In this document: piece after piece, positions 1-18,958 of the stretch
Layout of the letters: each line of letters opens with the position of its first letter
Position numbering within the stretch: position 1 is the stretch's first letter
Assembly: GCA_947462255.1 (NCBI GenBank)
Contig: CANHOA010000006.1
Coordinates: 1 to 64,000 of the forward strand
Length of the DNA: 64,000 nt
Direction of reading: 5' to 3'
DNA from: Flavobacteriales bacterium
Lineage (GTDB): Bacteria; Bacteroidota; Bacteroidia; Flavobacteriales_D; Crocinitomicaceae
Translations under genes and position numbers: made by a program
Notes under the pieces: generated by a model
What the model saw: the letters and a program-made list of their open reading frames with translations, nothing else
What the model was told of the DNA's origin: nothing
Databases searched by the model: none

Positions 1-2313
1 GCCTGTCGATGTATTATCTGCAGACTGACCTTTGGTAAGAATCGATTTTAAATTTGAAATTAATTTTGTTTCAATCAGCTTATCCAAACTTTCAATAAAT
101 TTAGAGGCTGATTCAGAACCATTTTGCATGTTGTTTATAACAAATTTGTCTTCATTAAAAGTAATCCTTATTAAATCCTCTATAGATTTTGAATTCAAAT
201 CTGTTTTAGCTGCGGTTTGCTGTATGAAAAAAGGTTGGCCATCTTTTATACCTGTGGCTATTCCGCATTCAGTTTCAAAAATACGTTTGAAAATATTTTT
301 ATTGGAATCCTCAAAACCATCTGCAAAATTTGCGATATTAGGTATAATCGTTGTTAAGGCATTATTCTTATACGAAAGGTATTTATTTATAAGATGCTTG
401 TGAGCATTGGGTTTAATCTTATCATCTATTTCGGCGGTCAAACTATTAATTACTTTCGTAAGATTTCCTCTAACATGCATGTTGTTAGATTGCCCAAAAC
501 TAATTTTATCACAAATTTCTTTTTTCAACTTAAGCAATAACTCATTTGCTTGATAATCGTAATAAGCCTTGATTAGGTTTTTTAAATTAGTCAACTCCGC
601 TTCATACCATTGCGCTTTTTTCATCACGCTCCATGCTGGTCCCTCCTTAATTGTGGCATACTGGGTAATTACGGTGTCAGCAAGGTTTCTATTAATGATT
701 TCTTGACTTTCAATAATTACAGTGGATTTTAAATCTGATAAAGCCTTAATCTCTGAATCGTACAACATAGATAAATCGTCGATGCGTGAGTCCAATGCTT
801 CATATACAAAACTCAATCTCATTAAACCTTGGCTTAATGCTATCTCTGTGCCTCCATCGTAAAACTCATTTAATATTTTAGTTGTAATACTATCAGTTTG
901 AAAACCACTCTGTAAAATAAATTCGATTAATTTTGAAGGAGTTTTATCTTTAATATCATTATCGAATAAACGTTTTAATCCCTCTGCCGAGCTTTCATCT
1001 TTTGTTTCAATTCCATCAGAATATTGCTTATCAATATTGGACTCTAAATAATCTTTCCAATATTTTTCTTTAAGCAGCGATAAATTTAATGGTTTTCCGT
1101 CAACCTCTTTTGCTTTATTATCGAAACCGTTGTATTTGTCTGATTCAATATAGGCTAAAAAATTATCTTGAAATAAAGGCCGAACTTCCAAATCAATATT
1201 GTCTTTTGAAGCTCCATTAATTCCAATAAAATTTTCATAGACCACACGTTTAAGATTCGTTTTGACATATTCTTCAAAAAAATCGCGACCGCTTCTAATC
1301 TCGGAATAACCTGCTGACCAGTATTGTTTTACCCAAGGTAAGTTATTATTTAATGATGTTACCGAATTAGGAAGAGTAGTATTGTCAAGGGCACTTATTA
1401 TACTGCCACCGTAAGTGCGAACAGAAATCATTTCAAGCAAACGAGCCACATCTTTATACCTTTGTTTAATGTCTGTAGCTTGTCCCGCCATATTTTCATG
1501 ATCGATTAAAATCGCAGAATTAAAAGGTTGAAAAGGAACCCGCCCTTGGTTATGTTTGTCTGCAATGATGGCAAATTTGGAAAAATGAGTGTCTCGTAAC
1601 GCAGCTGCATTTGCCGCACTTGTATCATTTGATTTAATCAAATTTGGATTAATTGAACCAAAATAATCTCTTTGAACAGCATCTAATTCTTTCCAGAATG
1701 CAAAAACATTTGTTTTGTATCGATCTACATTTTCTCCTTCTTGAAAACCAACAAATACATCAGGCATATAAAGTACAGCAGTAGGTTTACTAAAATCATG
1801 ACCTTTAAGTGTATAAAGCTCATCATAAAGAATCTGTGTAAGGTCGAGATAGATAGAGCTACCCGTACCACCGGCCACACTCAATACTATAAAAGTTTGA
1901 AGCTTTTCATTATCAGTTTTATGTATATCATCAATTTTTTTAATGATTAACTTAATTTTCTCCTTGAATTCTTTTGCAATTGAAGCTATTGCCAATCGAC
2001 CTTGTGGTCTGTTTGCTGAGGCGCCCTTGGCTAAGGGCCCATTCTTCATAGTTGCACGCGCATTTGGATCTAACCAGGTATCAACTTTATTTCGTACTTC
2101 ATTATTACTAGGAGCGGTTTGAAGGTAGGACGAAACATTAATCTTAGCTAAATCAACTTTTTCTCTTTCAGAAAAAGGATTCCCTTTGTCATCAACCAGG
2201 TCATTTGTATCGGTATCGATAAAAAGAAAATAATCGCCATCTCTGTGCTTTTCTCTAATTTCACGAACGGTTTTTAAACCAGAACCACCCATTGCAATAA
2301 ATAAATTTGCCAT
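1..2313 (-). CDS. Tubulin/FtsZ-like protein (Tubulin_2-type), 3' end outside window
   Basis: The frame is open for all 771 codons from the ATG at 2313 to the window edge, so the C-terminus is missing. The N-terminus begins MANLFIAMGGSG, a nucleotide-binding Gly-rich loop (residues 9-12). Residues 148-153 read GGTGSS, the tubulin/FtsZ signature GGTGSG with the last Gly changed to Ser; an acidic turn FIDTDTND follows beta-2 near residue 31. The long C-terminal part is helical and has no recognised domain. Length and motifs fit the large FtsZ-like family, far longer than cell-division FtsZ (about 400 aa). A cytoplasmic GTP-binding filament former is inferred. It starts 32 bp after the VWA gene, in the same direction, so co-transcription is likely. 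Comparative genomics (Makarova and Koonin, recalled) links this family with VWA and OmpA proteins in predicted membrane remodelling. Confidence 0.8.
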   Translation of the reverse strand, partial: MANLFIAMGGSGLKTVREIREKHRDGDYFLFIDTDTNDLVDDKGNPFSEREKVDLAKINVSSYLQTAPSNNEVRNKVDTWLDPNARATMKNGPLAKGASANRPQGRLAIASIAKEFKEKIKLIIKKIDDIHKTDNEKLQTFIVLSVAGGTGSSIYLDLTQILYDELYTLKGHDFSKPTAVLYMPDVFVGFQEGENVDRYKTNVFAFWKELDAVQRDYFGSINPNLIKSNDTSAANAAALRDTHFSKFAIIADKHNQGRVPFQPFNSAILIDHENMAGQATDIKQRYKDVARLLEMISVRTYGGSIISALDNTTLPNSVTSLNNNLPWVKQYWSAGYSEIRSGRDFFEEYVKTNLKRVVYENFIGINGASKDNIDLEVRPLFQDNFLAYIESDKYNGFDNKAKEVDGKPLNLSLLKEKYWKDYLESNIDKQYSDGIETKDESSAEGLKRLFDNDIKDKTPSKLIEFILQSGFQTDSITTKILNEFYDGGTEIALSQGLMRLSFVYEALDSRIDDLSMLYDSEIKALSDLKSTVIIESQEIINRNLADTVITQYATIKEGPAWSVMKKAQWYEAELTNLKNLIKAYYDYQANELLLKLKKEICDKISFGQSNNMHVRGNLTKVINSLTAEIDDKIKPNAHKHLINKYLSYKNNALTTIIPNIANFADGFEDSNKNIFKRIFETECGIATGIKDGQPFFIQQTAAKTDLNSKSIEDLIRITFNEDKFVINNMQNGSESASKFIESLDKLIETKLISNLKSILTKGQSADNTSTG

Positions 2314-2345
2314 TCTTTTTTATTTTTAAGATTATTATTTTTAAA

Positions 2346-3773
2346 TTATTTTACATTCGGCATAGTAATATTAATACCGTCTACAATCCATTTACTGCGC
2401 GTACTTGCAATAGTTTTTTTTCCTCTTGGGGCTGTTTTTTTTACCTTTCTGCTATCAAGAAGTAAATCACCATTTAATGGATAGATTAGTAAGCATTTAC
2501 CTTTGAAAAATTTCTTTGTAGCTCGTATTTCTAGAGAAAAATCATTTTTCAATAAACTTACTTCGTTATTGGAAATTTTTTTGTTGTTGCCGAAGCAATC
2601 AATCACAATTGTAGATTTGCCTGGGGTGTAAAAATCCATACTACCTCTTAATTTAGCTGGCGGGATTATCGTCCAAATGAACCTCAAAATCGAGAATAAA
2701 AGAACTATTACTATTATATCCGTTAGCCACCAGGGTATTAATGAATCGGCTGTCATTAATGTTACTTTTTGATTCTTGATTTCATCATCTGCAAGCTCCG
2801 GCAATTCATTTTTATATTTCTCAGCCACCAAAGTTCCAGAAACTTCGATTTCAATTTCCGTGGGTGGGAAAAAGCTATACAGTAAATCACTGTTTAAAAT
2901 TTCAGTGACTTTTTTTTCGGACTCCTCGTTTAATATTAGCTTACTGTATATTAGTGAATCAGCCCCTTTTTTTAACTCAATAGCCCCCCCATTATTTAAA
3001 AGAATAATATTCTTTTTTTGCAAATCCGCTTTGTCTGTTATCACTTCCTTTAAAAGTGTTTTTATTATTTGACCCTTAATGTTATTGAATTTATCGTCCA
3101 ATAAACTTGGATCAGTACAAGTAACGGTGGTTAAATCATTAAAAATATTCTTTATATAATTCAAATATTGTGGTTTTCTATCAACATTAGGTAATTCGAT
3201 GCAGTACACATATGGATTCTTAATTTTTTTCTTAAGATTATCATATTTTGTGATTAAAGGTTGCCAAAATTGCGGGCCAGGAACACTATATCCATTATTG
3301 TAATGAACAAAATCGGAGAAGATGAAAATTATTGGCGTTGCATTTTCAGCCCCTGTGCAATTTAGGGCATTTAACACTAAATCAGTCATTTTTACACCAT
3401 CGCTGCCTGTTGTACCAAATTGCTGTTTATCAATTTGTTTAATAATGGCATTTTTCTTTGAACTGTTTACAATGGCACACTCAGTTAAATTACTTGTTTT
3501 ATCTGTACTTCCTAAGAGTATTACATTAAAGTAATCCCCATCTTTTACAGGTTTTAAAAAATCTTTTACAATATTTTTAATATCATCTCCAAAGGTTTTA
3601 TCAGAGATATCTAAAACAAAAATAAAATTGAGTGGACTGCTTTTTAAATCTTTACCAAAATCAGCATAAGCATTAGGCCAAGCTTTTTTCACTAATTCTT
3701 CAGGAGTTCCCTGACCAAACAAACACGTTGAAAATAACAAAGCAACAATAGTAATGAAAAAACTTTTTACCAT
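2346..3773 (-). CDS. Membrane-anchored VWA-domain protein, partner of the FtsZ-like protein
   Basis: 475 aa. A signal peptide covers about residues 1-20 (ends CLFGQG). A VWA-like domain follows from about residue 46: strand NFIFVLDISDK with D55 and S57 of the metal-ion site, then IFSDF with D154. The third metal-site position is Lys59 rather than the usual Ser, so metal binding may be altered. One transmembrane helix lies at about 348-370 (WWLTDIIVIVLLFSILRF), leaving a cytoplasmic tail of about 100 residues with a beta-rich look. The topology would put the VWA domain in the periplasm and the tail beside the FtsZ-like protein encoded next. The specific function is unknown; the assignment rests on the VWA fold pattern and the neighbour. 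Confidence 0.72.
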   Translation of the reverse strand: MVKSFFITIVALLFSTCLFGQGTPEELVKKAWPNAYADFGKDLKSSPLNFIFVLDISDKTFGDDIKNIVKDFLKPVKDGDYFNVILLGSTDKTSNLTECAIVNSSKKNAIIKQIDKQQFGTTGSDGVKMTDLVLNALNCTGAENATPIIFIFSDFVHYNNGYSVPGPQFWQPLITKYDNLKKKIKNPYVYCIELPNVDRKPQYLNYIKNIFNDLTTVTCTDPSLLDDKFNNIKGQIIKTLLKEVITDKADLQKKNIILLNNGGAIELKKGADSLIYSKLILNEESEKKVTEILNSDLLYSFFPPTEIEIEVSGTLVAEKYKNELPELADDEIKNQKVTLMTADSLIPWWLTDIIVIVLLFSILRFIWTIIPPAKLRGSMDFYTPGKSTIVIDCFGNNKKISNNEVSLLKNDFSLEIRATKKFFKGKCLLIYPLNGDLLLDSRKVKKTAPRGKKTIASTRSKWIVDGINITMPNVK

Positions 3774-3800: not shown

Positions 3801-3950
3801 TTATTTAATTAGAATAAAAAGTCGGCCTTCATTATTTGTTAAATAAATAATCGTTTTGAAACAATAACTTTTTGATGTTCCTGACTTACTTATTATAGTT
3901 GTCATAGTTTTTACACCTGACCCACCGATTCCAATAAATAAATTTGCCTT
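3801..3950 (-). pseudogene. Relic of the 5' end of a second FtsZ-like gene
   Basis: Read on the minus strand, this stretch encodes ANLFIGIGGSGVKT, matching residues 2-15 of the intact FtsZ-like protein (ANLFIAMGGSGLKT) at 11 of 14 positions, with similarity also in the DNA and the A-rich leader. The start codon position is AAG instead of ATG. The frame stays open for about 50 codons to a TAA at 3801-3803, but similarity is lost after the Gly-rich loop. It lies directly upstream of the VWA gene. The simplest reading is a tandem FtsZ-like paralogue reduced to its first 15 codons by deletion. A recombination scar is the alternative. Confidence 0.65.
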
Positions 3951-3995
3951 TTTTTTTAGTTTTATAATTTGTTATTTAATTCTTTCAATAATGGT

Positions 3996-4060: not shown

Positions 4061-4846
4061 TTAGTGATCTTTTGGTCTAAAGGTCTCGTACCATTCTTTT
4101 GGATATTTATTCCATCCAACTAGCCAAGCACTTAAGCTATCTATCTCCAATTCATTAATATTATAGGAAGTTCTTAGCATTATTGAATTTGGAAATAACC
4201 TCTTAGCCTTTAGTTCATTGCTTTCACTTTGCGCAAATGTTTTGTATAAATCCCATGCGCCATATAAGTGTAAAATTTCATGTGCAATTGATGATGATGC
4301 TAGTTTTTCATTTCCGTTATATTTTTCGTACAAAACAGCCCCTTCAACATAATATTTTTCTTTTTCCATTTCAGTACTATAGGGCATAGCATAGCCATTA
4401 CCTTTTCCTTTAACAAAAATAATTACGTTGTAATTATTTGCATTTGTATTTTCCTTTATCCACGAGTCAAAATCTAAGTTGCTTTTATATCCGATTTTGT
4501 AAAAAACTTTAGATACCCAATCAACAGATTCATTACCTGAAGCATTTCCCCGCTCTATATAGGGTAATTTTATATCATTATTAAGTCCAAAATTTCCTGA
4601 TTCATTAAAGTCAACTGATATAGAATATTTTAAAGCCTCCTTACTAATCCAATTTTGACTTTCATTTAACAAATTCAGCATTTCTAATTTTTCATTATAT
4701 GTCCATTCGTCATTTGGACCAGAAACAAAACAACTTAATGTATATATCTTTCCAATTAGCTGATACGAACTTCCTGCTCTCCATTTACCAACATTCTGTG
4801 CTTGAAGAACAAGAGGGAATAAAAAAAATACTATAAATCTTTTCAT
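4061..4846 (-). CDS. Secreted metzincin-type zinc metalloprotease
   Basis: 261 aa with a signal peptide ending near residue 16 (FFLFPLVLQAQ). The zinc site reads HEILHLYGAWD: H189, E190, H193, G196 and D199 fit the metzincin pattern HExxHxxGxxH/D with Asp as third ligand, as in snapalysin-like enzymes. PNSIM at 219-223 has the position and form of the metzincin Met-turn. No propeptide or C-terminal sorting domain is obvious, so the product is probably periplasmic. Substrate unknown. It lies downstream of a coiled-coil lipoprotein on the same strand, 43 bp apart, and upstream of the FtsZ/VWA pair. The zinc motif makes the enzyme class fairly safe; the precise peptidase family is not decided. 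Confidence 0.7.
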   Translation of the reverse strand: MKRFIVFFLFPLVLQAQNVGKWRAGSSYQLIGKIYTLSCFVSGPNDEWTYNEKLEMLNLLNESQNWISKEALKYSISVDFNESGNFGLNNDIKLPYIERGNASGNESVDWVSKVFYKIGYKSNLDFDSWIKENTNANNYNVIIFVKGKGNGYAMPYSTEMEKEKYYVEGAVLYEKYNGNEKLASSSIAHEILHLYGAWDLYKTFAQSESNELKAKRLFPNSIMLRTSYNINELEIDSLSAWLVGWNKYPKEWYETFRPKDH

Positions 4847-6805: not shown

Positions 6806-7612
6806 ATGAGTTCAATGAATTACATAAAAAAAATCATCTTGAAGTGGGGTATATTAATTAAGATAATGCCCTTATTAATACTAATTCTCGTAGCAAAAAT
6901 ACTGGTAGATTATTACAATCTAGAGTTTCTGGAATTAAATTCATTGTTTACTTCTTTGGTTGCAGCAACTATATTTTTAATTGGATTTTTAATTTCAGGA
7001 GTTTTATCAGATTACAAAGAAAGTGAAAGGATACCTTCAGATTTGACAGCATCATTAAAAAATTTACAAGATGACGCTTTAATGCTGTCAAAAGTAAAAC
7101 ACGGTGACTCGATTGGCTATCTATCTGCAATTAGGTTTCTTGAATATCAAAAAATAGTTGCTTTTAAAATTAAAGACTGGTTATATAGTGAAATAACCAG
7201 TGAAGAAATGATAAAATTAATAGGTGATATGAATACTTACTTTATTGAGTTGGATGCCGAGGGTGTTCAAGCAAATTACATTATCAAAATGAAAAATGAG
7301 CAAAATAATTTACGGAAAATAATTTTAAGGATTGACACAATTAGAAAAACCGATTTTATTAGTTCTGCTTATGCTATTGTAGAGTCAATGGCTTTTATTA
7401 TTTCAATAGGATTAGTATTCATTAATATTGATCTGGACAAACAAAATTTATTTTCGGAAGTCTTTTTTACGCTTCTGGTTAGTTTTCTTATTTTTTATAT
7501 GATAGCATTAATAAAGGATATTGATGATCCTTTTGATTATCAAAACAATGGAGAAAGTGGATCTGAGATAAATTTAGATGTGTTTAATGACCACCTTAAA
7601 TCCTTAAAATAA
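6806..7612 (+). CDS. Bestrophin-like (DUF4239-type) membrane protein
   Basis: 268 aa. Four hydrophobic helices, two at about 13-34 and 46-68 and two in the last third (SAYAIVESMAFIISIGLVFI and FFTLLVSFLIFYMIALI), frame a soluble helical middle section. The segment after helix 4, LIKDIDDPFDYQ, matches the D-x-PF signature that ends bestrophin-like DUF4239 proteins. Such proteins are thought to be anion channels or related membrane proteins; transport by this one is untested. The Met at 6806 is followed by another at codon 4, so the start could be three codons later. It converges on the CASTOR/POLLUX-like gene with only 8 bp between their stops. Confidence 0.55.
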   Translation: MSSMNYIKKIILKWGILIKIMPLLILILVAKILVDYYNLEFLELNSLFTSLVAATIFLIGFLISGVLSDYKESERIPSDLTASLKNLQDDALMLSKVKHGDSIGYLSAIRFLEYQKIVAFKIKDWLYSEITSEEMIKLIGDMNTYFIELDAEGVQANYIIKMKNEQNNLRKIILRIDTIRKTDFISSAYAIVESMAFIISIGLVFINIDLDKQNLFSEVFFTLLVSFLIFYMIALIKDIDDPFDYQNNGESGSEINLDVFNDHLKSLK

Positions 7613-7620
7613 TAGACGTA

Positions 7621-9618
7621 TCAATCATTTGCTATTACTAATATCTTATCCTCTGGTCCTAATTTATGTTTGGAAAATTTGTCAGGTGACAAGATTGATT
7701 GAAAAGAAGTGATATCGTCAATGTATTTTCGATCATGAATACCGATTACAATTTCATTGCGTTTAAGTCCTTCATTAACAAGTTCACCAAAGGTAACTTC
7801 TGAGTCAAGATTATTAAGGTAAGTACTCGCTGACCTTAAATAGAATTCTGCACCAGAATCATCCAAGAGATCGTTATAAACTTCTTTTAAGTGTTTATTT
7901 TCAGAAAGTTGAACTAAATACATCGCGATTAACTCTTCTCCTGTTATGAACTCATCATCGCGGTTACCATCGATTAATCTTTTATTTTTAGGGTCTAATA
8001 ACTCACAACAGATATTATAACTAGATTGATTTGTATCTCTGTGGGATTTAATATGAGTAAAAGTCATCAGTGTTAAGGAATCTGCTTCTTGAATTTCAAA
8101 ATCATCACGATAACTTAAAATGACAACAGAATTAGTTTTAGTCCAATTCACTTGGTTTACATACTCCTTGTTTGAGGCTTTAAGTGGTTTTATAGTTATT
8201 TTTAAATTTTGGTATTTACTAAAAAATGATTCATTTGGGGAGTATTTTATTTTGTCATTAAATAAAATATCTACCTCTGATCCTATTTCCAATTGTGCAT
8301 TAAGCTCTTCAATTAAAACATGAGCCCAACTATTCCATCCAATTATTGTTACGTGTTTTTTTACTTTCGGTTCCTTTATTATTGTAGATTGAATTTGTGG
8401 ATTACTCATTAGGGGCTGATATAATTCCTTCATATTTCCAATAGTTGAATCATCTTCACTTATTAAAATAAGTTGGTCGTTTTCTTTGATTATTGTTGAA
8501 AAATCAGGAAGGATATTTATTACTTTTTTATTTTTTTCTTCTTTATCTTTTTCTTCTTTATCTTTTTCTTCGTTGCTAGCAATCCCAATTAAAGAAGATG
8601 ATGAAAAATTAAAAACAATTTCCTTAAAAGTCTTTCCAACAAAATTATTAGCAAAATTGGACTTGCCTAAACTATCATTAGAATCATGACTTGGTGGCCA
8701 AATATAAATTTCCTTCCCGCTGAAAGTAAGTAAATCATAATAAAGCTTGCTTAATCCCGGTTCTTTGATTGTCTGCGCAATTACGCGCATAATAAAGTTT
8801 TTAGGCTGAATTACAGTGAACTTATCCAGTTTTTTAATTGCATCTGCATTTTCTGGAGAATGAACTTCTGCAATTATTGGGCAAGTGATCGTTTTATCTT
8901 TCTGCAGCGCAAGGGCTCTTTTTAAAACTATTGAATCACTGTTTACATCTTCAGTCGATAATAAAACAATGCTCCTTGCAGTACTAGCACTCACCATTTG
9001 CAAATCCAAATCATAACTTGGATCGCCTGAACGACAAATCACATCTGTATTTGACCAATGAGGTATCTCGGGAAGAAGCTCCTCCTCCATAAGCACTTTG
9101 TCTTTAGCGGCCAGAATAACCATGCTGGAATGGGCCATACTCCTATTAGATTCTGATAATTCTATGATAGCAGTTCTAAGTTTATTAGACCATCCGAGAA
9201 ATATGGAATGATTACTTTCAATAACAACTGATTTCCCTCTTTTTAAATCAGAGATCTTGGATTGAATAATATTAGAAATCATACCGATTAAAGCACCTAA
9301 AAATAGTAGTCCAATAACTGCTGCTATGATATTGATTATTATTTCAATAGGCTGAGCACCGTCTCCAGGTTTAAATGACGGAGATAGACAAATATCTAGT
9401 ATGCCACTAAATACCGTATAAAAGGTTTCTTTCGATACCGTCGGATCCACCGGGACCACCAGGACCGTCTGATCAATAGGGCCCAAGAAAATAAACTTTA
9501 GAATAGATAAAATTAAAATAAATACTAAGAAAGCAATTGAAATCAAAAACAAAAATAACTTTGGCTTTTTACTAATTATTTTACCGAAGTTATAAGCGAA
9601 TATTTTTATTAAATTCAT
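7621..9618 (-). CDS. CASTOR/POLLUX-type ion channel protein
   Basis: 665 aa. Two transmembrane helices flank a pore-like segment (about residues 20-44 and 92-115), followed by two tandem RCK-like nucleotide/ion-binding domains. Segment IFLGWSNKLRTAI begins the first, and the second begins HVTIIGWNSWAHVLIEEL, both with the Gly-containing turn of a Rossmann-like fold. The order matches CASTOR/POLLUX (DMI1) channels of plants and their bacterial relatives, about 600-900 aa. Cation conductance with Ca or nucleotide control is inferred from the family. Between the RCK domains is a charged linker made of EEKDK repeats, from a 15-bp DNA repeat near 8529-8575. Convergent with the bestrophin-like gene. 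Confidence 0.75.
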   Translation of the reverse strand: MNLIKIFAYNFGKIISKKPKLFLFLISIAFLVFILILSILKFIFLGPIDQTVLVVPVDPTVSKETFYTVFSGILDICLSPSFKPGDGAQPIEIIINIIAAVIGLLFLGALIGMISNIIQSKISDLKRGKSVVIESNHSIFLGWSNKLRTAIIELSESNRSMAHSSMVILAAKDKVLMEEELLPEIPHWSNTDVICRSGDPSYDLDLQMVSASTARSIVLLSTEDVNSDSIVLKRALALQKDKTITCPIIAEVHSPENADAIKKLDKFTVIQPKNFIMRVIAQTIKEPGLSKLYYDLLTFSGKEIYIWPPSHDSNDSLGKSNFANNFVGKTFKEIVFNFSSSSLIGIASNEEKDKEEKDKEEKNKKVINILPDFSTIIKENDQLILISEDDSTIGNMKELYQPLMSNPQIQSTIIKEPKVKKHVTIIGWNSWAHVLIEELNAQLEIGSEVDILFNDKIKYSPNESFFSKYQNLKITIKPLKASNKEYVNQVNWTKTNSVVILSYRDDFEIQEADSLTLMTFTHIKSHRDTNQSSYNICCELLDPKNKRLIDGNRDDEFITGEELIAMYLVQLSENKHLKEVYNDLLDDSGAEFYLRSASTYLNNLDSEVTFGELVNEGLKRNEIVIGIHDRKYIDDITSFQSILSPDKFSKHKLGPEDKILVIAND
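8529..8575. repeat. 15-bp tandem repeat inside the channel gene
   Basis: About three copies of a unit reading CTTCTTTATCTTTTT on the plus strand encode EEKDK-EEKDK-EEKNK on the minus strand. The unit length is a multiple of three, so copy-number change keeps frame. The tract forms the linker between the two RCK-like domains. Confidence 0.75.
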
Positions 9619-9668
9619 AGCTAATTTTTAAAAGTGTTTCTAAAGTTAAAATATTTATTCGAGGTTTA

Positions 9669-9702
9669 ATTGAAATATAGGTTTATTTATGGTATTCGAA
9701 TT
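9669..9702. repeat. Direct repeat copy B (partner at 5379)
   Basis: Second copy of the approximate 33-bp direct repeat, containing AAATATAGGTTTATTTATGG then TATTCGAATT. It lies upstream of the CASTOR/POLLUX gene and downstream of the DUF1624-type gene. It may be a shared regulatory element or a junction mark of an inserted block. Confidence 0.5.
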
Positions 9703-9810
9703 AATTTCATGTTTTCGAAAAATAGACGACTCCTTGCCCAAGCTGACTAGTTTCTAATGCAAATTCACTTCTAAAATTTAAGTTAGTTTAACTTTAGTTA
9801 GAAATTCTTT

Positions 9811-10866
9811 TTACCTAATCCCAAGTATTTTTTTGATGGATTTTGGAACAAATTCAACTAATTTGTTTTTTTCTATTTTTTCTAGAAGATACGCCATTGC
9901 AAATGCTGAAAGTATAAAAATAAAGTTTACTATTAAAAATAATAATGGCCTCATTGGTTTAGCAAAACTTGCTAAAATATAGGCGATGATGAAGGCATGA
10001 TAAATATATATAAACATGCTTTTTCGGCCCAGAATACCTAAAAATATAAAGAATCGATGTCCATTAAGTTTTGAATTATTAAAAAATGAAAACAGTAAAA
10101 ATATTAGAGTTAGAAAAAAACAAATAAAGTAAGGTGATGGTGGGTAGAAAATTTCTAGGTAGCCATCTCTTTCAGGAATTGGTGAGATGGTCTGTAATAC
10201 CAAATATAAAAAAAATGAAAGCGCAAATAGAGTCGGCCACTTTAAAATAGTCATGTATTTATTTATAATATCGATTTTTTGATAAAAAATTTGGCCAAGA
10301 ATTGCTACACCTGTCCATGGAAATAATGGAAACCAACCATCAATTAGCCATCTTTTAGCATCGAAAATACTGCTGAAGTTAATCTGTTTAAGAGAAATTA
10401 TATTAATAGGTTGATCGTAAATATTGAATCTATAAGCGACAAGAAATTTCAAGCAGAATGATCCTAAAATAAAAATAGATGCGATAGATAATTTAATAAT
10501 TACATTAAAGTCGAAAATCAATGTGTTAATTAGGATCCCAAACGCAATGAGATACAAAACATCAAAAGTTTGAAAGGGTAATATTTGCCATACCACAGTA
10601 TCGATAAAAATAGCTGATAGCAGTAAATAAAAAGCTTGGGTATATTTATGCTTTTTGTTTTTATCTTTTCTAAACGACAAATGAAATGAATAACCCGACA
10701 AGAAAATAAATAGTGGCGCAGCAATTGAACATAATAATCTGAACCAAATGGGATGAGGTTCTTGAAAAATATAGGGGCTAGAATTAGCAAAAATCATTAT
10801 TACAATTGCAAGTGATCTAAAAAAATCAATTTTTGTAAGCCTATTACTCTCTATGGTTTTCAGCAT
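9811..10866 (-). CDS. DUF1624-type multi-pass membrane acyltransferase-like protein
   Basis: 351 aa with about ten transmembrane helices. The N-terminus, RLTKIDFFRSLAIVIMIFAN, is the characteristic opening of the heparan-alpha-glucosaminide N-acetyltransferase-like (DUF1624) family, usually R-x-DFLRG-x-A, and SIAAPLFIFLSGYSF follows as in the family. Known relatives move acetyl groups across a membrane onto sugars; the substrate here is unknown. Helices continue to near the C-terminus, which ends in a basic KKILGIR. It begins 4 bp after the stop codon of the ligand-gated channel gene, so the two are almost certainly co-transcribed. Generic acyltransferase-3 membership is the main alternative. 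Confidence 0.62.
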   Translation of the reverse strand: MLKTIESNRLTKIDFFRSLAIVIMIFANSSPYIFQEPHPIWFRLLCSIAAPLFIFLSGYSFHLSFRKDKNKKHKYTQAFYLLLSAIFIDTVVWQILPFQTFDVLYLIAFGILINTLIFDFNVIIKLSIASIFILGSFCLKFLVAYRFNIYDQPINIISLKQINFSSIFDAKRWLIDGWFPLFPWTGVAILGQIFYQKIDIINKYMTILKWPTLFALSFFLYLVLQTISPIPERDGYLEIFYPPSPYFICFFLTLIFLLFSFFNNSKLNGHRFFIFLGILGRKSMFIYIYHAFIIAYILASFAKPMRPLLFLIVNFIFILSAFAMAYLLEKIEKNKLVEFVPKSIKKILGIR

Positions 10867-10870
10867 TAGT

Positions 10871-11875
10871 TTATATAAAATAGATCAATAAAAATAAACT
10901 TATCAAAAATAATATGGGGAATAGGTATCTTGAATATAATTCTAGTTTTATGGATATTTTTTTTTGCTTATCAGTTCCTTCGGAAAGATTAAAAGTAAAC
11001 ACTGTTTGAGCCATAGCGTAGAAAATAAAGAAAAATACTAGATAAAATATTTTATCCATGAGTGTTATGTATGATACTTTCGGCAGCGAATCATAAATAG
11101 TCCATTGAAATGCAATTGCTGCTAATAATGATGTGACTGTAAGTGCTGATGCTGTTCCAATTTCATGGTCGGGAATATAAAAAACTAGATACGCTAGGAT
11201 TAAGACTACCAAAAGAGGTAAAGAAATTTTTTGAAAGACTTCAAAGGCATTATGGCTAATTTTAATGTTAAAGTTTAACCGAGAATACACGTCATATTCT
11301 TTTATACTGGGGTCACCGAAATTTGTTTTATACTCATAATTTCCGGTATTAAAATTCAACTCGGAAACATTAAAAAGACCTCCGTTTAAAATGTCAATAT
11401 TATTATCACTTATTTTGTTTATTAATGAGAAACGATTATCAGGGATGTATAATAATTTAGTGTTGTTAGCAACAGTATTTTCTATTTCAATATTAAGATT
11501 TTGTTTGTCAAACGGAAAATTTTTAAAATTGGATTTATATGGAAAAGTAGATTTACAAAAACCGTTCACGTAATAATATTTTTCGATTGAATCAACCTTT
11601 TCCTCTAAAATATCATTCTCTAGATTAGAACTATTAATAAATTCGATGTCTTTAATAAATTCATAATTTTCATTAAGATTTATTGAGTCAACCCGCAGCC
11701 AATAGTAAAAATTAACATCAAATGTTTCATCAATCTGATTTATTTTTATTGTTTTAAGATAAATTCCGGTTTTACAGTGAACAATTTTTTGAGCATTTAA
11801 ATGGTTAAATGAAACAAATAGAAAAAAAAGAAATAGCACATAATTATTTCTAAATAAAGCAAAAATATAATTCAT
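10871..11875 (-). CDS. Pentameric ligand-gated ion channel (prokaryotic Cys-loop-type)
   Basis: 334 aa. The signal peptide covers about residues 1-28 (ends NHLNAQ). The extracellular beta domain contains FPFDKQ at 120-125, the conserved loop motif of the family, without the Cys pair of animal receptors. Four helices follow: M1 about 214-234, M2 about 239-262, M3 about 275-295, M4 about 317-334. The M2-M3 turn carries LPK (264-266), as in GLIC. Glu238 at the inner mouth of M2 suggests cation selectivity, by family rule. There is almost no cytoplasmic M3-M4 loop, as usual in bacteria. The ligand is unknown. It leads a two-gene unit with the DUF1624-type protein. Confidence 0.82.
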   Translation of the reverse strand: MNYIFALFRNNYVLFLFFLFVSFNHLNAQKIVHCKTGIYLKTIKINQIDETFDVNFYYWLRVDSINLNENYEFIKDIEFINSSNLENDILEEKVDSIEKYYYVNGFCKSTFPYKSNFKNFPFDKQNLNIEIENTVANNTKLLYIPDNRFSLINKISDNNIDILNGGLFNVSELNFNTGNYEYKTNFGDPSIKEYDVYSRLNFNIKISHNAFEVFQKISLPLLVVLILAYLVFYIPDHEIGTASALTVTSLLAAIAFQWTIYDSLPKVSYITLMDKIFYLVFFFIFYAMAQTVFTFNLSEGTDKQKKISIKLELYSRYLFPILFLISLFLLIYFI

Positions 11876-12014: not shown

Positions 12015-12022
12015 TACGTTTG
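12015..12022 (+). promoter_or_regulatory. Bacteroidota -7 box, OmpA-family gene
   Basis: TACGTTTG matches TAnnTTTG exactly. It ends five bases before the ATG at 12028, so transcription should begin at or just before the start codon. This excludes the in-frame GTG at 12022 as the start and implies a nearly leaderless mRNA. No clear TTG -33 box was seen. Confidence 0.5.
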
Positions 12023-12027
12023 TGTAT

Positions 12028-12885
12028 ATGAATTTCCGTATTTACAAGATTTTATTTTTACTTTTCGGCTTATCTGCAACGCTTTCATCTTGTAGTGGCG
12101 GACTTAGTCCAAAAGAAAAAAACAAGGAGGAGCTACCTTTTAAGGATAGTGTTAAAACTGAAGTAAGTCGCGCAAATTGGCGAAATCCTGTTATGAGCCC
12201 GGTTGGTGTTGGGGTTGCTAGGATTATTCGCGGATATTACCTTGTCGGAGATTATGAAAAAATGCTTCAATTTGTCATAGTACCTCCTTGTTACGAGCGT
12301 AAGCAAATAGATTACATCATAAGAAAATCAAATTGGGGCTATGAAATTAATCTGACAAATTTACAATGGTTACCAGACAGCACATTTATTCTTACGCATA
12401 GAACAAATAAACAAAATACTACAGGGGCTGAGCAGTACGTTGGTAGAATTGTTAATGATACTGCAAAAATATTTTTATTTCCAGAAAAGCAAAATCTTTT
12501 CCAATATTATGGCGATGAGAACCTTGATGATCCCTGCCAACTAAAAGACGCTTTAGATCAAATCTATTTTGCTTTTGATAAGACAACTATTCTTAAAAAA
12601 TCAAACACTGCATTGCGCACAATCCTAAACTACCTAAAGTCAAATACTAACATTCGTGCACGATTTATTGGTCATGCAAGCAATGAAGGGAATAAATCAC
12701 ATAACATGCAACTCAGTGAATTAAGAGCGAAAGCTATATGCGATTATCTATCAGCAAATGGGATCTTACCCGAACGATTAAGTTATGTTGGAAAAGGTGA
12801 TACAGAGCCTTTGGTATTAAATGATACAGAAGCAAATAAAAGTAAAAACCGAAGGGTAGAAATCAGTATTACTGATTATAAATAA
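12028..12885 (+). CDS. OmpA-family peptidoglycan-binding lipoprotein
   Basis: 285 aa from the ATG at 12028; a GTG two codons upstream lies inside the promoter box and is rejected. The leader ends in LSSC, a lipobox with lipidated Cys near residue 22. A middle domain of about 130 residues has no recognised family. The C-terminal OmpA domain starts at IYFAFDKTTIL and contains IGHASNEG, the helix LSELRAKAICDYL, and the closing NKSKNRRVEI motif, all of which line the diaminopimelate-binding site in relatives. The product probably ties the outer membrane to the cell wall. OmpA proteins are among the reported partners of large FtsZ-like proteins, but this gene is 8 kb away and divergent, so a link is speculative. 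The PLD-like gene follows 27 bp later. Confidence 0.8.
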   Translation: MNFRIYKILFLLFGLSATLSSCSGGLSPKEKNKEELPFKDSVKTEVSRANWRNPVMSPVGVGVARIIRGYYLVGDYEKMLQFVIVPPCYERKQIDYIIRKSNWGYEINLTNLQWLPDSTFILTHRTNKQNTTGAEQYVGRIVNDTAKIFLFPEKQNLFQYYGDENLDDPCQLKDALDQIYFAFDKTTILKKSNTALRTILNYLKSNTNIRARFIGHASNEGNKSHNMQLSELRAKAICDYLSANGILPERLSYVGKGDTEPLVLNDTEANKSKNRRVEISITDYK

Positions 12886-12912
12886 GATAGATAATAGTAA
12901 TAGCTTGTAAAA

Positions 12913-13362
12913 ATGGAATATAAAATCGCATTCAGTCCTGGTTCAGATTGCAAAAAGCTAATCCTAGATACTATACGGGAAGCAACCCATAAACTTGATG
13001 TCTGCGTATTTACTATCAGTGACGATACTATTTCTGATGCTTTAAAAGCAGCATTTGATCGTGGTCTTGAGATTAGAATTTTAACTGATAATTTAAAAGT
13101 TAGCGATGAAGGTTCGGATATCGAATATCTTTACAATAGCGGAATTGATATACGCATTGATCGCTCTGAAAATCACATGCACCATAAATTTATGGTCGCG
13201 GATGGCCTTGTAACGATTACAGGTTCGTATAATTGGACGCGCAGCGCGGAGAAATACAATCAAGAAAATGTAATTTGGATAAATGATGAACAATTTTCAA
13301 GTTCTTTTTTATCTGAGTTTGAAACATTATGGAGTAATTCATTTGAATTACATTCATATTAA
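12913..13362 (+). CDS. Single-HKD phospholipase D-like nuclease/phosphodiesterase
   Basis: 149 aa. One HKD motif, HHKFMVADG, supplies H90, K92 and D97, followed by TITGSYNWTRSAEKYNQEN, which matches the conserved GSxNW...N tail of Nuc/mitochondrial-PLD proteins. With a single motif the active site would form across a dimer. There is no signal peptide, so it should be cytoplasmic, unlike exported Nuc. Substrate may be nucleic acid or a phospholipid; motif alone cannot decide. It follows the OmpA-family gene on the same strand at 27 bp and may share its transcript, with no obvious functional tie. Confidence 0.78.
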   Translation: MEYKIAFSPGSDCKKLILDTIREATHKLDVCVFTISDDTISDALKAAFDRGLEIRILTDNLKVSDEGSDIEYLYNSGIDIRIDRSENHMHHKFMVADGLVTITGSYNWTRSAEKYNQENVIWINDEQFSSSFLSEFETLWSNSFELHSY

Positions 13363-17932: not shown

Positions 17933-18958
17933 TTAGGACAGATCGATTTGGGTAATCGCATTGCACACAAAATCAATGTCTTCTTTCGTTATGTGTAAGT
18001 GGGTAACCATGCGGATCATTCCTGGACCAAAAGCAATTACTTTGATGCCATGTTGCGCTAGCGCCTGAATTAAGTCGTCTCTTTTATTCGGTTCTTTAAG
18101 TAATATCACTACGATATTGGTTTCTACCGGCATAATATCGGCCACCCAGTCACATTTTTTCAAGCCAATTTCCAAAAGTTTTGCGTGACTATGGTCATGA
18201 ATCAATCGATCAACATTATACTTCAAGGCAAACAATCCTCCAGCTGCGATAAATCCAGCTTGTCGCATGCCACCGCCAAAAACTTTTCGAACCCTGCGTG
18301 CTTTCACAATAAAATCTGCTGAACCCAATAATATTGATCCGATTGGCGCACCAAGTCCTTTGGATAAACAAACAGAGATAGAATCAAAGGGCGCGCAATA
18401 TACTTTTTCATCGATGCCATTTACTGCAAGTGCATTCATCAGCCTTGCACCATCTAAATGCAACGGAAGCTTATTTGCCAAGCATACTTCTTTAATTTTC
18501 AGTATTTCATTAAAGTCATAGACTGCTCCACCACCTCTATTGGCGGTATCTTCAATTGATACTAATTGAGTGAGCGGAAAATGAACATCATGAATAGGGT
18601 TCATGTATTTTTCAATTTCAGCAGCTGTAATTCTCCCACGATCTCCGCGCAAAAGTCGAACAGATGCACCGGAATTACGAGCAATTCCACCGCCTTCATA
18701 TTTATAAACGTGACTTTCTTCATGGCAGATTACTTCGCCTCCTGGTTGAACGTGAACATTGATAGCTATCTGGTTTGTTTGTGTTCCCGAGGAGCAAAAT
18801 AAGGCAGCTTCTTTTCCGAAGTAATTTGCAGCAAAAGATTCTAATTCATTTACGGTAGGGTCTTCGCCAAAAACATCATCACCCACCGTGGCTGCTGCCA
18901 TGGCTTTTATCATTTCCGCGCAAGGTTTGGTAAGCGTATCGCTTCGTAAATCAATCAT
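17933..18958 (-). CDS. ltaE: Low-specificity L-threonine aldolase
   Basis: 341 aa, the usual length. It begins MIDLRSDTLTKP, typical of the family, with GEDPTVNELE next. PLP-site residues are visible: H83 (HEESHVY) stacking on the ring, D169 and R172 in LHLDGARLMNA, and the Schiff-base Lys200 in SVCLSKGLGAPIGS. It cleaves L-threonine or allo-threonine to glycine and acetaldehyde in the cytoplasm. Promoter box TAACTTTG (reverse of 18976-18983) sits 18 bp upstream of the start. It is divergent from the TauE/SafE permease gene. Confidence 0.93.
   Translation of the reverse strand: MIDLRSDTLTKPCAEMIKAMAAATVGDDVFGEDPTVNELESFAANYFGKEAALFCSSGTQTNQIAINVHVQPGGEVICHEESHVYKYEGGGIARNSGASVRLLRGDRGRITAAEIEKYMNPIHDVHFPLTQLVSIEDTANRGGGAVYDFNEILKIKEVCLANKLPLHLDGARLMNALAVNGIDEKVYCAPFDSISVCLSKGLGAPIGSILLGSADFIVKARRVRKVFGGGMRQAGFIAAGGLFALKYNVDRLIHDHSHAKLLEIGLKKCDWVADIMPVETNIVVILLKEPNKRDDLIQALAQHGIKVIAFGPGMIRMVTHLHITKEDIDFVCNAITQIDLS

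What the first reader, a model, noticed from the sequence alone, without database searches (positions are those of the whole stretch)
1..3773. FtsZ/tubulin-like giant paired with a membrane VWA protein
The sequence shows an FtsZ-like GTP-binding signature (GG-S-G loop, GGTGSS) in an open frame of at least 771 codons, 32 bp from a VWA protein with one membrane helix and a cytoplasmic tail. Makarova and Koonin (recalled) proposed such pairs as a membrane-remodelling system that is still largely uncharacterised. The rest of the locus may continue beyond position 1.
Basis: partly seen in the sequence, partly recalled or inferred. Interest (0 to 1): 0.75.

Follow-up and report, generated by a model that had tools for sequence, protein, structure and literature searches.

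The report
Tubulin-like protein with membrane VWA partner
A Bacteroidota genome carries a bacterial relative of tubulin next to a membrane sensor-like protein, a pairing described in 2010 and still little understood; this copy looks like the cut-down remains of a larger machine that in some relatives includes protein-cutting enzymes.

Summary
Window 1-2313 (-) encodes a Tubulin_2 (PF13809) protein, E 2.9e-35, with a predicted tubulin/FtsZ fold, 32 bp after a signal-peptide/VWA/one-helix/tail protein at 2346-3773. This is the FtsZl1-VWA operon of Makarova and Koonin 2010, a known kind.

Extending left onto contig C20 gives 929 aa and no GTPase among the neighbours scanned. Only 2 of 86 genomes of the genus carry the gene. 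The other, G132, has about 200 and 280 further C-terminal residues in its two tubulins, a 888-aa two-helix protein, a second VWA protein and a papain-family protease. The window genome shows one Tubulin_2 gene and no match to the 888-aa protein or second VWA, but keeps a broken tubulin start at 3907-3964. I read the locus as a cut-down relic.

In several relatives the gene after tubulin is a membrane-anchored pseudo-tubulin; in some Bacteroidota it, or a neighbour, carries a calpain or papain domain. I did not find that in print in the searches made.

The parts
1..2313 (-). First 771 codons of the tubulin-like (Tubulin_2 / FtsZl1) gene; continues for 158 codons on contig C20 (L005:19558..19082, -)
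   Evidence: PF13809 E 2.9e-35; 63-base exact contig overlap; tubulin/FtsZ fold, listed rows Z 16.3-18.6
1246..2304 (-). Tubulin_2 GTPase domain with GGSG and AGGTGSS loops
   Evidence: G9 G10 G12 and G148 G149 T150 G151 invariant or nearly so in a 42-row alignment
2346..3773 (-). VWA protein, 475 aa: signal peptide-like start, predicted periplasmic VWA domain, one transmembrane helix (about 353-371), cytoplasmic tail
   Evidence: VWA fold Z 17.8; helix; 49% identical to the G132 partner
3907..3964 (-). Remnant of a second tubulin gene start, including its leader; start codon lost and frame broken after a short stretch
   Evidence: 51 of 59 bases identical to the window tubulin start; 0 of 200 simple base shuffles of the gap scored as high;
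4061..4846 (-). Possible upstream member: secreted metallopeptidase-like protein, 261 aa, with an HEILHLYGAWD zinc-site-like motif (motif type recalled)
   Evidence: Reprolysin_3 E 0.043, under cut-off; weak 30-residue likeness to the gene upstream of the G132 VWA gene

Best explanation
A member of the FtsZl1 (Tubulin_2)-VWA membrane system, and most likely a cut-down relic of a larger two-tubulin, protease-bearing version such as that of G132. Proposed working of the full system: the VWA domain, outside the inner membrane, binds a ligand or an envelope structure; its helix and tail carry the signal through the membrane to the cytosolic tubulin-like GTPase; this assembles in a GTP-dependent way on the membrane with a membrane-anchored partner (in several lineages a pseudo-tubulin that has lost its GTP loops); in some Bacteroidota that assembly controls a papain-fold cysteine protease. 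Shown: gene content, folds, the shorter C-terminus, the missing partners, and the association with proteases in some relatives. Inferred: signal direction, GTP-dependent assembly, control of a protease, and that the window copy is a relic rather than a minimal working pair.
For: Family. Joining of contigs: exact 63-base overlap, alignment to G132 runs on across the junction, and congener G108, without the system, has orthologues of the C20 and C6 flanks 6.4 kb apart. Truncation: G132's two C-terminal fragments go on for 213 and 290 residues past the last residue aligned with the window protein, which has about 11 more. Missing partners: G132 has a 888-aa two-helix protein, VWA2, papain protease and second tubulin; own-genome searches find one Tubulin_2 gene and no match to the 888-aa protein or VWA2. 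Remnant of a second tubulin start. Transmembrane coupling: juxtamembrane part, helix and tail 65% identical to G132 against 37% for the VWA part. Calpain: in 6 of 30 genomes, one copy each, 5 of them inside the tubulin locus. Pseudo-tubulin partner: hhalign E 9.8e-21 in cyanobacteria, 3.9e-16 in the calpain-bearing Chitinophagales set (E-values of single comparisons).
Against: The window tubulin is an unbroken frame of 929 codons, as long as several relatives (921-927 aa), so a working short form is possible. The tail comparison with families beyond G132 is not significant (hhalign E 0.17). G132's gene order is inferred across contig breaks, and its 888-aa protein shows no significant tubulin likeness (E 0.026; E 0.085). 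The empty own-genome searches had no positive control. All five calpain genomes outside the family are Chitinophagales MAGs of one series (titles), so with G071 there are perhaps two independent cases; G071's calpain has Asp where the others have Asn. Papain-family genes are common (22 of 30 genomes). Of 53 downstream proteins from all phyla calpain is in 4 and papain in 1 (25 of 40 matched families listed). Synechocystis mutants of a Tubulin_2 gene show a motility and photosystem defect, which does not ask for a protease.
Confidence: 0.57

Rival explanations
1. An intact minimal two-gene device: VWA receptor plus tubulin-like scaffold, working without a third component as a membrane-remodelling or membrane-organising filament, as Makarova and Koonin proposed for the family.
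For: Both frames are open and co-directional; VWA is detectable in the tubulin directon in 53 of 86 loci, a lower bound as it missed G132's; protein length within the family range.
Against: Ends about 200 and 280 residues before the two G132 copies; 52 of 74 loci have a gene of 300 aa or more within three genes downstream in the same direction, whereas the window tubulin is followed by a 128-aa and a 290-aa gene without Pfam match that G108 also has without the system; a broken second tubulin start lies next to it.
Confidence: 0.22
2. A motility or surface-sensing device linked to pili or gliding, as the Tubulin_2 gene sll0445 of Synechocystis suggests; the VWA protein would read the envelope appendage and the tubulin would organise the motor or its base.
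For: PMC9880817, section 9 read: interruption of sll0445, sll0446 and sll0447 impaired phototaxis, and the proteins formed complexes with pilus assembly proteins in co-fractionation. PMC12313861, one passage read: Sll0445 and Sll0446 deregulated in a comFB mutant.
Against: Found in only 2 of 86 genomes of the genus, unlike a core motility part; no motility family among the neighbours scanned here; the Synechocystis mutants also changed photosystem II electron transport, so the defect may be indirect.
Confidence: 0.1
3. A conflict (defence-like) system: membrane sensor and GTPase assembly set off a protease against the cell or an invader, like the GTPase-tubulin-vWA systems of Kaur et al. 2020. 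This overlaps with the best explanation and differs in purpose.
For: Patchy spread: 4 of 200 family genomes and 10 of 395 phylum genomes over cut-off; island-like setting with low GC; caspase-family genes, calpain or papain in some relatives; two tubulins and two VWA genes in G132, as Kaur et al. describe for Firmicutes (passages).
Against: No informative PADLOC match (none to the tubulin, one chance-level Cas7 row to the VWA protein); no P-loop GTPase family among the neighbours scanned; no match in the plasmid collection and one weak partial match in the phage collection.
Confidence: 0.25
4. Assembly artefact: C6 and C20 are wrongly joined, or the MAG is chimeric, so the short C-terminus is not real.
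For: The gene spans a contig break, and G132's tubulin genes break its assembly too.
Against: Exact overlap of 63 bases with C20 only, continuous alignment to G132 across it, and flanks that are near each other in G108; the stop lies on C20 about 0.5 kb inside the contig.
Confidence: 0.07

Closest known systems
FtsZl1 family (Tubulin_2, PF13809) with VWA operons, Makarova and Koonin 2010 (PMC2875224; parts 1-3 of 5 read)
   Same: N-terminal FtsZ/tubulin-like GTPase domain with the GTP loop, long helical C-terminal part, adjacent membrane VWA gene
   Different: Window copy ends before its G132 counterparts, has no P-loop GTPase, kinase or OmpA gene among the same-direction neighbours scanned, and lies beside a broken second tubulin start
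GTPase-centred conflict systems with tubulin and vWA genes, Kaur et al. 2020 (PMC7159879; passages read)
   Same: Tubulin plus membrane vWA; G132 shows two tubulins and two vWA genes; peptidases in some relatives
   Different: No P-loop GTPase family found among the neighbours scanned here; the word calpain has 0 occurrences in that paper's main text
Synechocystis sll0445-sll0447 (PMC9880817; section 9 and passages read)
   Same: Tubulin_2 gene in a cluster; in other cyanobacteria the layout is VWA - tubulin - about 1015-aa protein
   Different: Those cyanobacterial loci keep the third gene, which is a pseudo-tubulin; the window has no such gene. I did not examine the Synechocystis genes themselves
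FtsZ / CetZ / tubulin
   Same: Predicted fold of residues 1 to about 340: for example Z 18.6 with 223 aligned (gamma-tubulin), 18.2 with 199 (CetZ1), 17.5 with 183 (FtsZ)
   Different: 12-19% identity over the listed rows; Foldseek TM-scores are low (0.33-0.43 by target); the long helical region beyond was barely tested by the comparison
Bacterial calpains (PMC4631099, PMC9380684; word search and passages only)
   Same: Calpain domain, Cys and His kept, in some Bacteroidota relatives
   Different: In those relatives it sits in the tubulin locus; neither paper's main text contains tubulin or FtsZ; the window genome has no calpain match

Membership tests
FtsZl1 / Tubulin_2 | N-terminal Tubulin_2 domain over the curated cut-off | tested here: met
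   122.6 bits against 27, E 2.9e-35
FtsZl1 / Tubulin_2 | GTP-binding glycine loop | tested here: met
   GGSG and AGGTGSS in the sequence; aligned near-invariant columns
FtsZl1 / Tubulin_2 | tubulin-superfamily fold | tested here: met
   Foldseek first 50 rows all FtsZ, best E 2.6e-4, though with low TM-scores; gamma-tubulin Z 18.6, rmsd 3.5, 223 aligned
FtsZl1 / Tubulin_2 | coiled-coil middle and helical C-terminal domain | tested here: inconclusive
   Long helices between 411 and 764 in the model, partly low confidence; C-terminal end shorter than in G132
FtsZl1-VWA operon | adjacent vWA-domain gene, membrane-associated | tested here: met
   2346-3773 (-), VWA fold Z 17.8, one helix
FtsZl1-VWA operon | P-loop GTPase, kinase or OmpA gene in the operon (frequent in the 2010 paper, not universal) | tested here: not met
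   None in the same-direction neighbours scanned; only a sub-cut-off AAA_31 row, E 0.0075, to a coiled-coil lipoprotein; OmpA gene at 12022-12885 (+) is 8 kb away
Kaur et al. GTPase-tubulin conflict system | TRAFAC GTPase with GAP1 partner in the neighbourhood | tested here: inconclusive
   No GTPase family in the proteins scanned with Pfam on both sides, but models of these particular GTPase and GAP1 families were not sought by name
Kaur et al. GTPase-tubulin conflict system | acts in conflict or immunity | not testable with these tools
   needs phage or toxicity assays
cell-division FtsZ | canonical Tubulin (PF00091) domain over cut-off | tested here: not met
   17.1 bits against cut-off 33
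VWA domain protein | MIDAS residues | tested here: inconclusive
   D55, S57 and D154 invariant in 10 rows, but the third position is K59 where the motif as given in PMC2875224 (DxSxS) has S
full protease-bearing Bacteroidota system | papain-fold protease and third component in the locus | tested here: not met
   no calpain match in the genome; 888-aa protein and VWA2 not found (empty answers without a positive control); the two papain-family hits lie on other contigs (C13, C4)

The most novel reading that the evidence does not exclude
Some Bacteroidota carry a membrane-spanning machine in which a periplasmic VWA receptor controls a GTP-binding tubulin that pairs, alpha/beta-like, with a membrane-anchored pseudo-tubulin, and the pseudo-tubulin itself carries a calpain protease: a bacterial tubulin-gated protease. 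The window locus is a natural deletion form of a related, papain-bearing version.
Probability: 0.25. Interest if true: 0.8.

Novelty: new member of a known kind. Interest (0 to 1): 0.45.

Why it matters
FtsZl1 proteins are among the most divergent relatives of tubulin and FtsZ, and the searches made here turned up almost no experimental study of them apart from the Synechocystis mutants. The comparison offers two testable leads that I did not see in the parts of the 2010 paper that I read: in several lineages the gene after the tubulin is a second tubulin-like protein with membrane helices and, in cyanobacteria, without GTP loops; and in some Bacteroidota it or a neighbour bears a calpain or papain domain. 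If right, a bacterial tubulin pair gates a protease across a membrane. The window itself is a reduced copy and would matter mainly as a natural loss-of-part example.

Tried and rejected
Leftward GTPase/OmpA genes: looked for on C20, none in the three genes scanned next to the tubulin. PADLOC and NCBIfam: no informative match to the pair. Solved relatives by sequence: only a CetZ-type tubulin/FtsZ GTPase at E 0.2 and chance chaperonin rows; VWA protein one row at E 0.39. G132's 888-aa protein as a pseudo-tubulin: not supported; likewise the third proteins of L027, L028, and the Corynebacterium and Deinococcota-type sets. Comparing the C-terminal tail with other families: not significant; a global alignment of the tails was misaligned and not used for the truncation claim. 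Recombination between the two tubulin genes as the cause of the deletion: considered because G132's copies share an identical middle stretch at which its contigs break; the window C-terminus is no closer to one G132 copy than the other (144 of 332 and 146 of 334), so left as a guess. Mobility: no plasmid match, one weak partial phage-collection match (MT836542, unannotated) not followed. The window metallopeptidase as a fixed member: only a 30-residue likeness.

Weak points of my own work. In one search the window VWA, metallopeptidase and lipoprotein rows were taken from the wrong record, so their 'no neighbours' lines there are void; redone. One search failed for the same reason. VWA and neighbour counts rest on a simple ORF caller and a home-made profile. 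Of the 12 random proteins taken as controls, 8 did not match the tubulin profile and 4 did (L097, L081, L112, L052); those 4 lie next to tubulin genes and are third genes or tubulin pieces, so the controls are not clean.
Full report
OBSERVATION. The window is bases 1-64000 of contig C6 of a 2.67 Mb, 42-contig genome. On its minus strand lie an ORF open at the edge, 1-2313 (771 codons), and a 475-codon ORF, 2346-3773, 32 bp upstream of it. The first matches Tubulin_2 (PF13809) at E 2.9e-35 over residues 4-356; the canonical tubulin/FtsZ model PF00091 reaches only 0.0072, under its cut-off. The second matches VWA_3 at E 0.02, under cut-off.

FULL LENGTH. The last 63 bases of contig C20 (54120 bases) equal window 1-63 exactly. 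Reading on gives 158 further codons and a stop: 929 aa. Two things support the join. The alignment with the closest relative runs on across it. And genome G108 of the same genus, in which no such tubulin was found, has orthologues of the C20 gene 18225-18611 (91% identical) and of the window gene 17933-18958 (88%) 6.4 kb apart, with other genes between; in the window genome about 19 kb, the tubulin locus included, lie between them. The first 12 kb of the window are also lower in GC (0.29-0.32) than the rest (0.34-0.40). The locus therefore looks like a variable island.

FOLDS. A model of the 771 residues with 42 aligned rows has mean pLDDT 64, mostly above 80 over the first 200 residues and low in parts of the helical remainder. 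The first 50 Foldseek rows are all FtsZ, best E 2.6e-4, with low TM-scores (0.33-0.43 by target). The closer alignment gives Z 18.6 with a gamma-tubulin (rmsd 3.5, 223 aligned), 18.2 with CetZ1 and 17.5 with FtsZ, mainly over residues 1-340; rows within 1 Z are tied. The VWA protein model (pLDDT 64, 10 rows) matches a bacterial VWA structure with Z 17.8, rmsd 2.6, 175 aligned, residues 46-242. Its end, after the helix, is of low confidence and its fold is not settled. The metal site keeps D55, S57 and D154 but has K59.

DISTRIBUTION. Tubulin_2 over cut-off is in 4 of 200 genomes of the family (7 of 200 at E <= 0.001) and in 10 of 395 of the phylum (13 at E <= 0.001), the window genome counted in both. 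In the genus 2 of 86 genomes match the window tubulin: this one and G132, whose contigs carry the title 'Flavobacteriales bacterium isolate RE-26jul17-234'. The VWA gene was sought in 21 other genomes of the genus and found in G132 only, next to the tubulin gene.

THE FULLER RELATIVE. G132 has, on C9, VWA (479 aa) then a tubulin start. C88 holds a tubulin C-terminal part, a 888-aa protein with two hydrophobic helices, a 727-aa membrane VWA protein (PF00092 E 1.5e-11), a 314-aa papain-family protease (PF00112 E 6.8e-16) and a second tubulin start. C87 holds a second tubulin C-terminal part. The contigs break where the two tubulin genes are identical. The order VWA1 - TubA - 888 - VWA2 - protease - TubB is the simplest reading and is inferred. 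The C-terminal parts run 213 (C88) and 290 residues (C87) beyond the last residue aligned with the window protein, which itself ends about 11 residues later; so about 200 and 280 are missing. tblastn with the C88 part finds nothing after the window stop at E <= 1. The window genome has one Tubulin_2 gene and no match to the 888-aa protein or VWA2 (empty answers without a positive control). Window 3907-3964 keeps a second tubulin start with leader, 51 of 59 bases identical, start codon lost; 0 of 200 simple base shuffles scored as high. Together these suggest that the window locus is what remains of a two-tubulin system. An OmpA-PLD gene pair (12022-13362) is shared with G132's C9 (63-66% and 67% identical), so the region may have a common history in both genomes.

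COUPLING. Between the window and G132 VWA proteins, juxtamembrane part, helix and tail are 65% identical (113 of 175), against 37% (82 of 221) for the N-terminal VWA part. The membrane-crossing end is the more conserved one. [quoted passage not shown] It is one pair of sequences, and the step from conservation to contact is inference.

SURVEY OF RELATIVES. A scan of the GTDB-species collection found 348 relatives, of which the best 80 loci were kept. I examined 86 loci: 12 and 74. Left out were L039, L040 and L045 as copies of loci already held, and L043, L060 and L108, which gave no ORF matching my tubulin profile; G132 counts twice. 53 of the 86 have a VWA gene in the tubulin directon by a home-made profile, a lower bound, as it missed G132's C9 VWA; the window's own scores 28 bits against it. 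A frequent layout is VWA-helix protein, tubulin of about 900-1200 aa, then a 700-1100-aa protein, often with membrane helices.

THIRD COMPONENT. By profile comparison (E-values of single comparisons) the third protein is itself tubulin-like in cyanobacteria (9.8e-21), in the calpain-bearing Chitinophagales set (3.9e-16), in L064 (5.5e-14), in the set L074/L109/L087 (4.5e-14) and in L086 (8.9e-13); weaker in the Treponema-type set (2.4e-4); not in L027, L028, G132, Corynebacterium or Deinococcota-type sets. Pfam finds Tubulin_2 in L074 (1.9e-8), and under cut-off in L086 (5.4e-5) and L059 (0.0016), but not in L054, L084, L064 or L109. In the cyanobacterial consensus the GTP loops have been replaced. 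I call these pseudo-tubulins.

PROTEASES. Calpain domains are in the third proteins of L028, L048, L050, L052 and L059; a papain domain is in that of L027; G132 has papain as a separate gene; and L028 has two further caspase-family genes upstream. By eye, with residue roles recalled, the calpain Cys and His are present in 5 of 5 and the Asn in 4 of 5 (Asp in L028); the papain Cys, His and Asn are present in 2 of 2. The third proteins of L036 (kinase and HSP70 domains) and L045 (nothing recognised) have no protease. In a search of 30 genomes (21 with Tubulin_2, 9 of the genus without), calpain is in 6, one copy each, all with Tubulin_2; in 5 it lies in the tubulin locus, and in the sixth (G637) on a different contig from a 3.4 kb tubulin contig. 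Five of the six (L048, L050, L052, L059, L072) are Chitinophagales MAGs of one series (titles), so perhaps two independent cases. Papain-family genes are common (22 of 30), so the two papain cases are weaker. Of 53 downstream proteins from all phyla, 4 match calpain, 1 papain, 3 HSP70 and 3 Tubulin_2; only 25 of the 40 matched families were listed. Those 53 are 52 from 74 loci plus G132's; 12 of 86 loci were left out as near-duplicates, 22 had no such gene in the directon, and L050 was missed by the ORF rule.

LITERATURE. Makarova and Koonin 2010 (PMC2875224, parts 1-3 of 5 read) defined FtsZl1 and its VWA operons and guessed membrane remodelling. Kaur et al. 2020 (PMC7159879, passages) describe GTPase-centred systems with tubulin and vWA genes in Firmicutes and actinobacteria; 'calpain' has 0 occurrences. 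PMC9871819 (passages) set Tubulin_2 proteins aside as divergent and sparse. In Synechocystis, interruption of sll0445 (Tubulin_2), sll0446 and sll0447 impaired phototaxis and altered photosystem II, and the proteins formed complexes with pilus assembly proteins (PMC9880817, section 9 read). PMC12313861 (one passage) reports Sll0445 and Sll0446 deregulated in a comFB mutant. Two bacterial-calpain papers (PMC4631099, PMC9380684; word search) do not contain 'tubulin' or 'FtsZ'. The searches listed no report of a tubulin-calpain locus; the library holds open-licence papers only.

VERDICT. The pair is real and of a known kind. The window copy is most likely a truncated remainder. The interest lies in what relatives show: VWA-tubulin loci with a pseudo-tubulin partner and, in some Bacteroidota, cysteine proteases.

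Noticed in passing
window 6806-11875: Three different ion-channel-like genes close together: Bestrophin-like (E 8.2e-4, under cut-off), Castor/Pollux-type with RCK domain, and a pentameric ligand-gated channel-like protein (Neur_chan_memb E 4e-9).
   Followed up: no
window 12022-13362: OmpA-domain gene followed by a PLD-domain gene, conserved on the contig of the G132 tubulin locus (63-66% and 67% identity).
   Followed up: partly
L054, L084, L064, L074, L086 (third gene after tubulin): Large proteins with a divergent tubulin-like domain next to the GTP-binding tubulin; GTP loops replaced in the cyanobacterial ones.
   Followed up: partly
L048:13444-17511, L059:6229-10296, L050:3465-7535, L052:3408-6053: Calpain domain set before (perhaps inside) a degenerate tubulin domain in one protein; the only calpain match in its genome.
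   Followed up: partly
L028:4644-6633: Two tandem caspase-family genes just upstream of the VWA-tubulin-calpain locus; the first has only a partial domain match.
   Followed up: no
L029/L030/L123 (G132 contigs C9, C88, C87): The two tubulin paralogues have diverged ends but identical stretches where the contigs break, which suggests gene conversion.
   Followed up: partly
L073, L079, L080, L032: A separate Tubulin_2 group without a detected VWA gene, behind a five-gene block (187-, 157-169-, 443-447-, 166-171- and 264-265-aa proteins) and before a short protein of 92-112 aa.
   Followed up: no
L123:8557-9474 (G132 C87): A protein starting with a DUF262/GmrS-like sequence (name recalled, not searched) a few kb beyond the second tubulin.
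   Followed up: no
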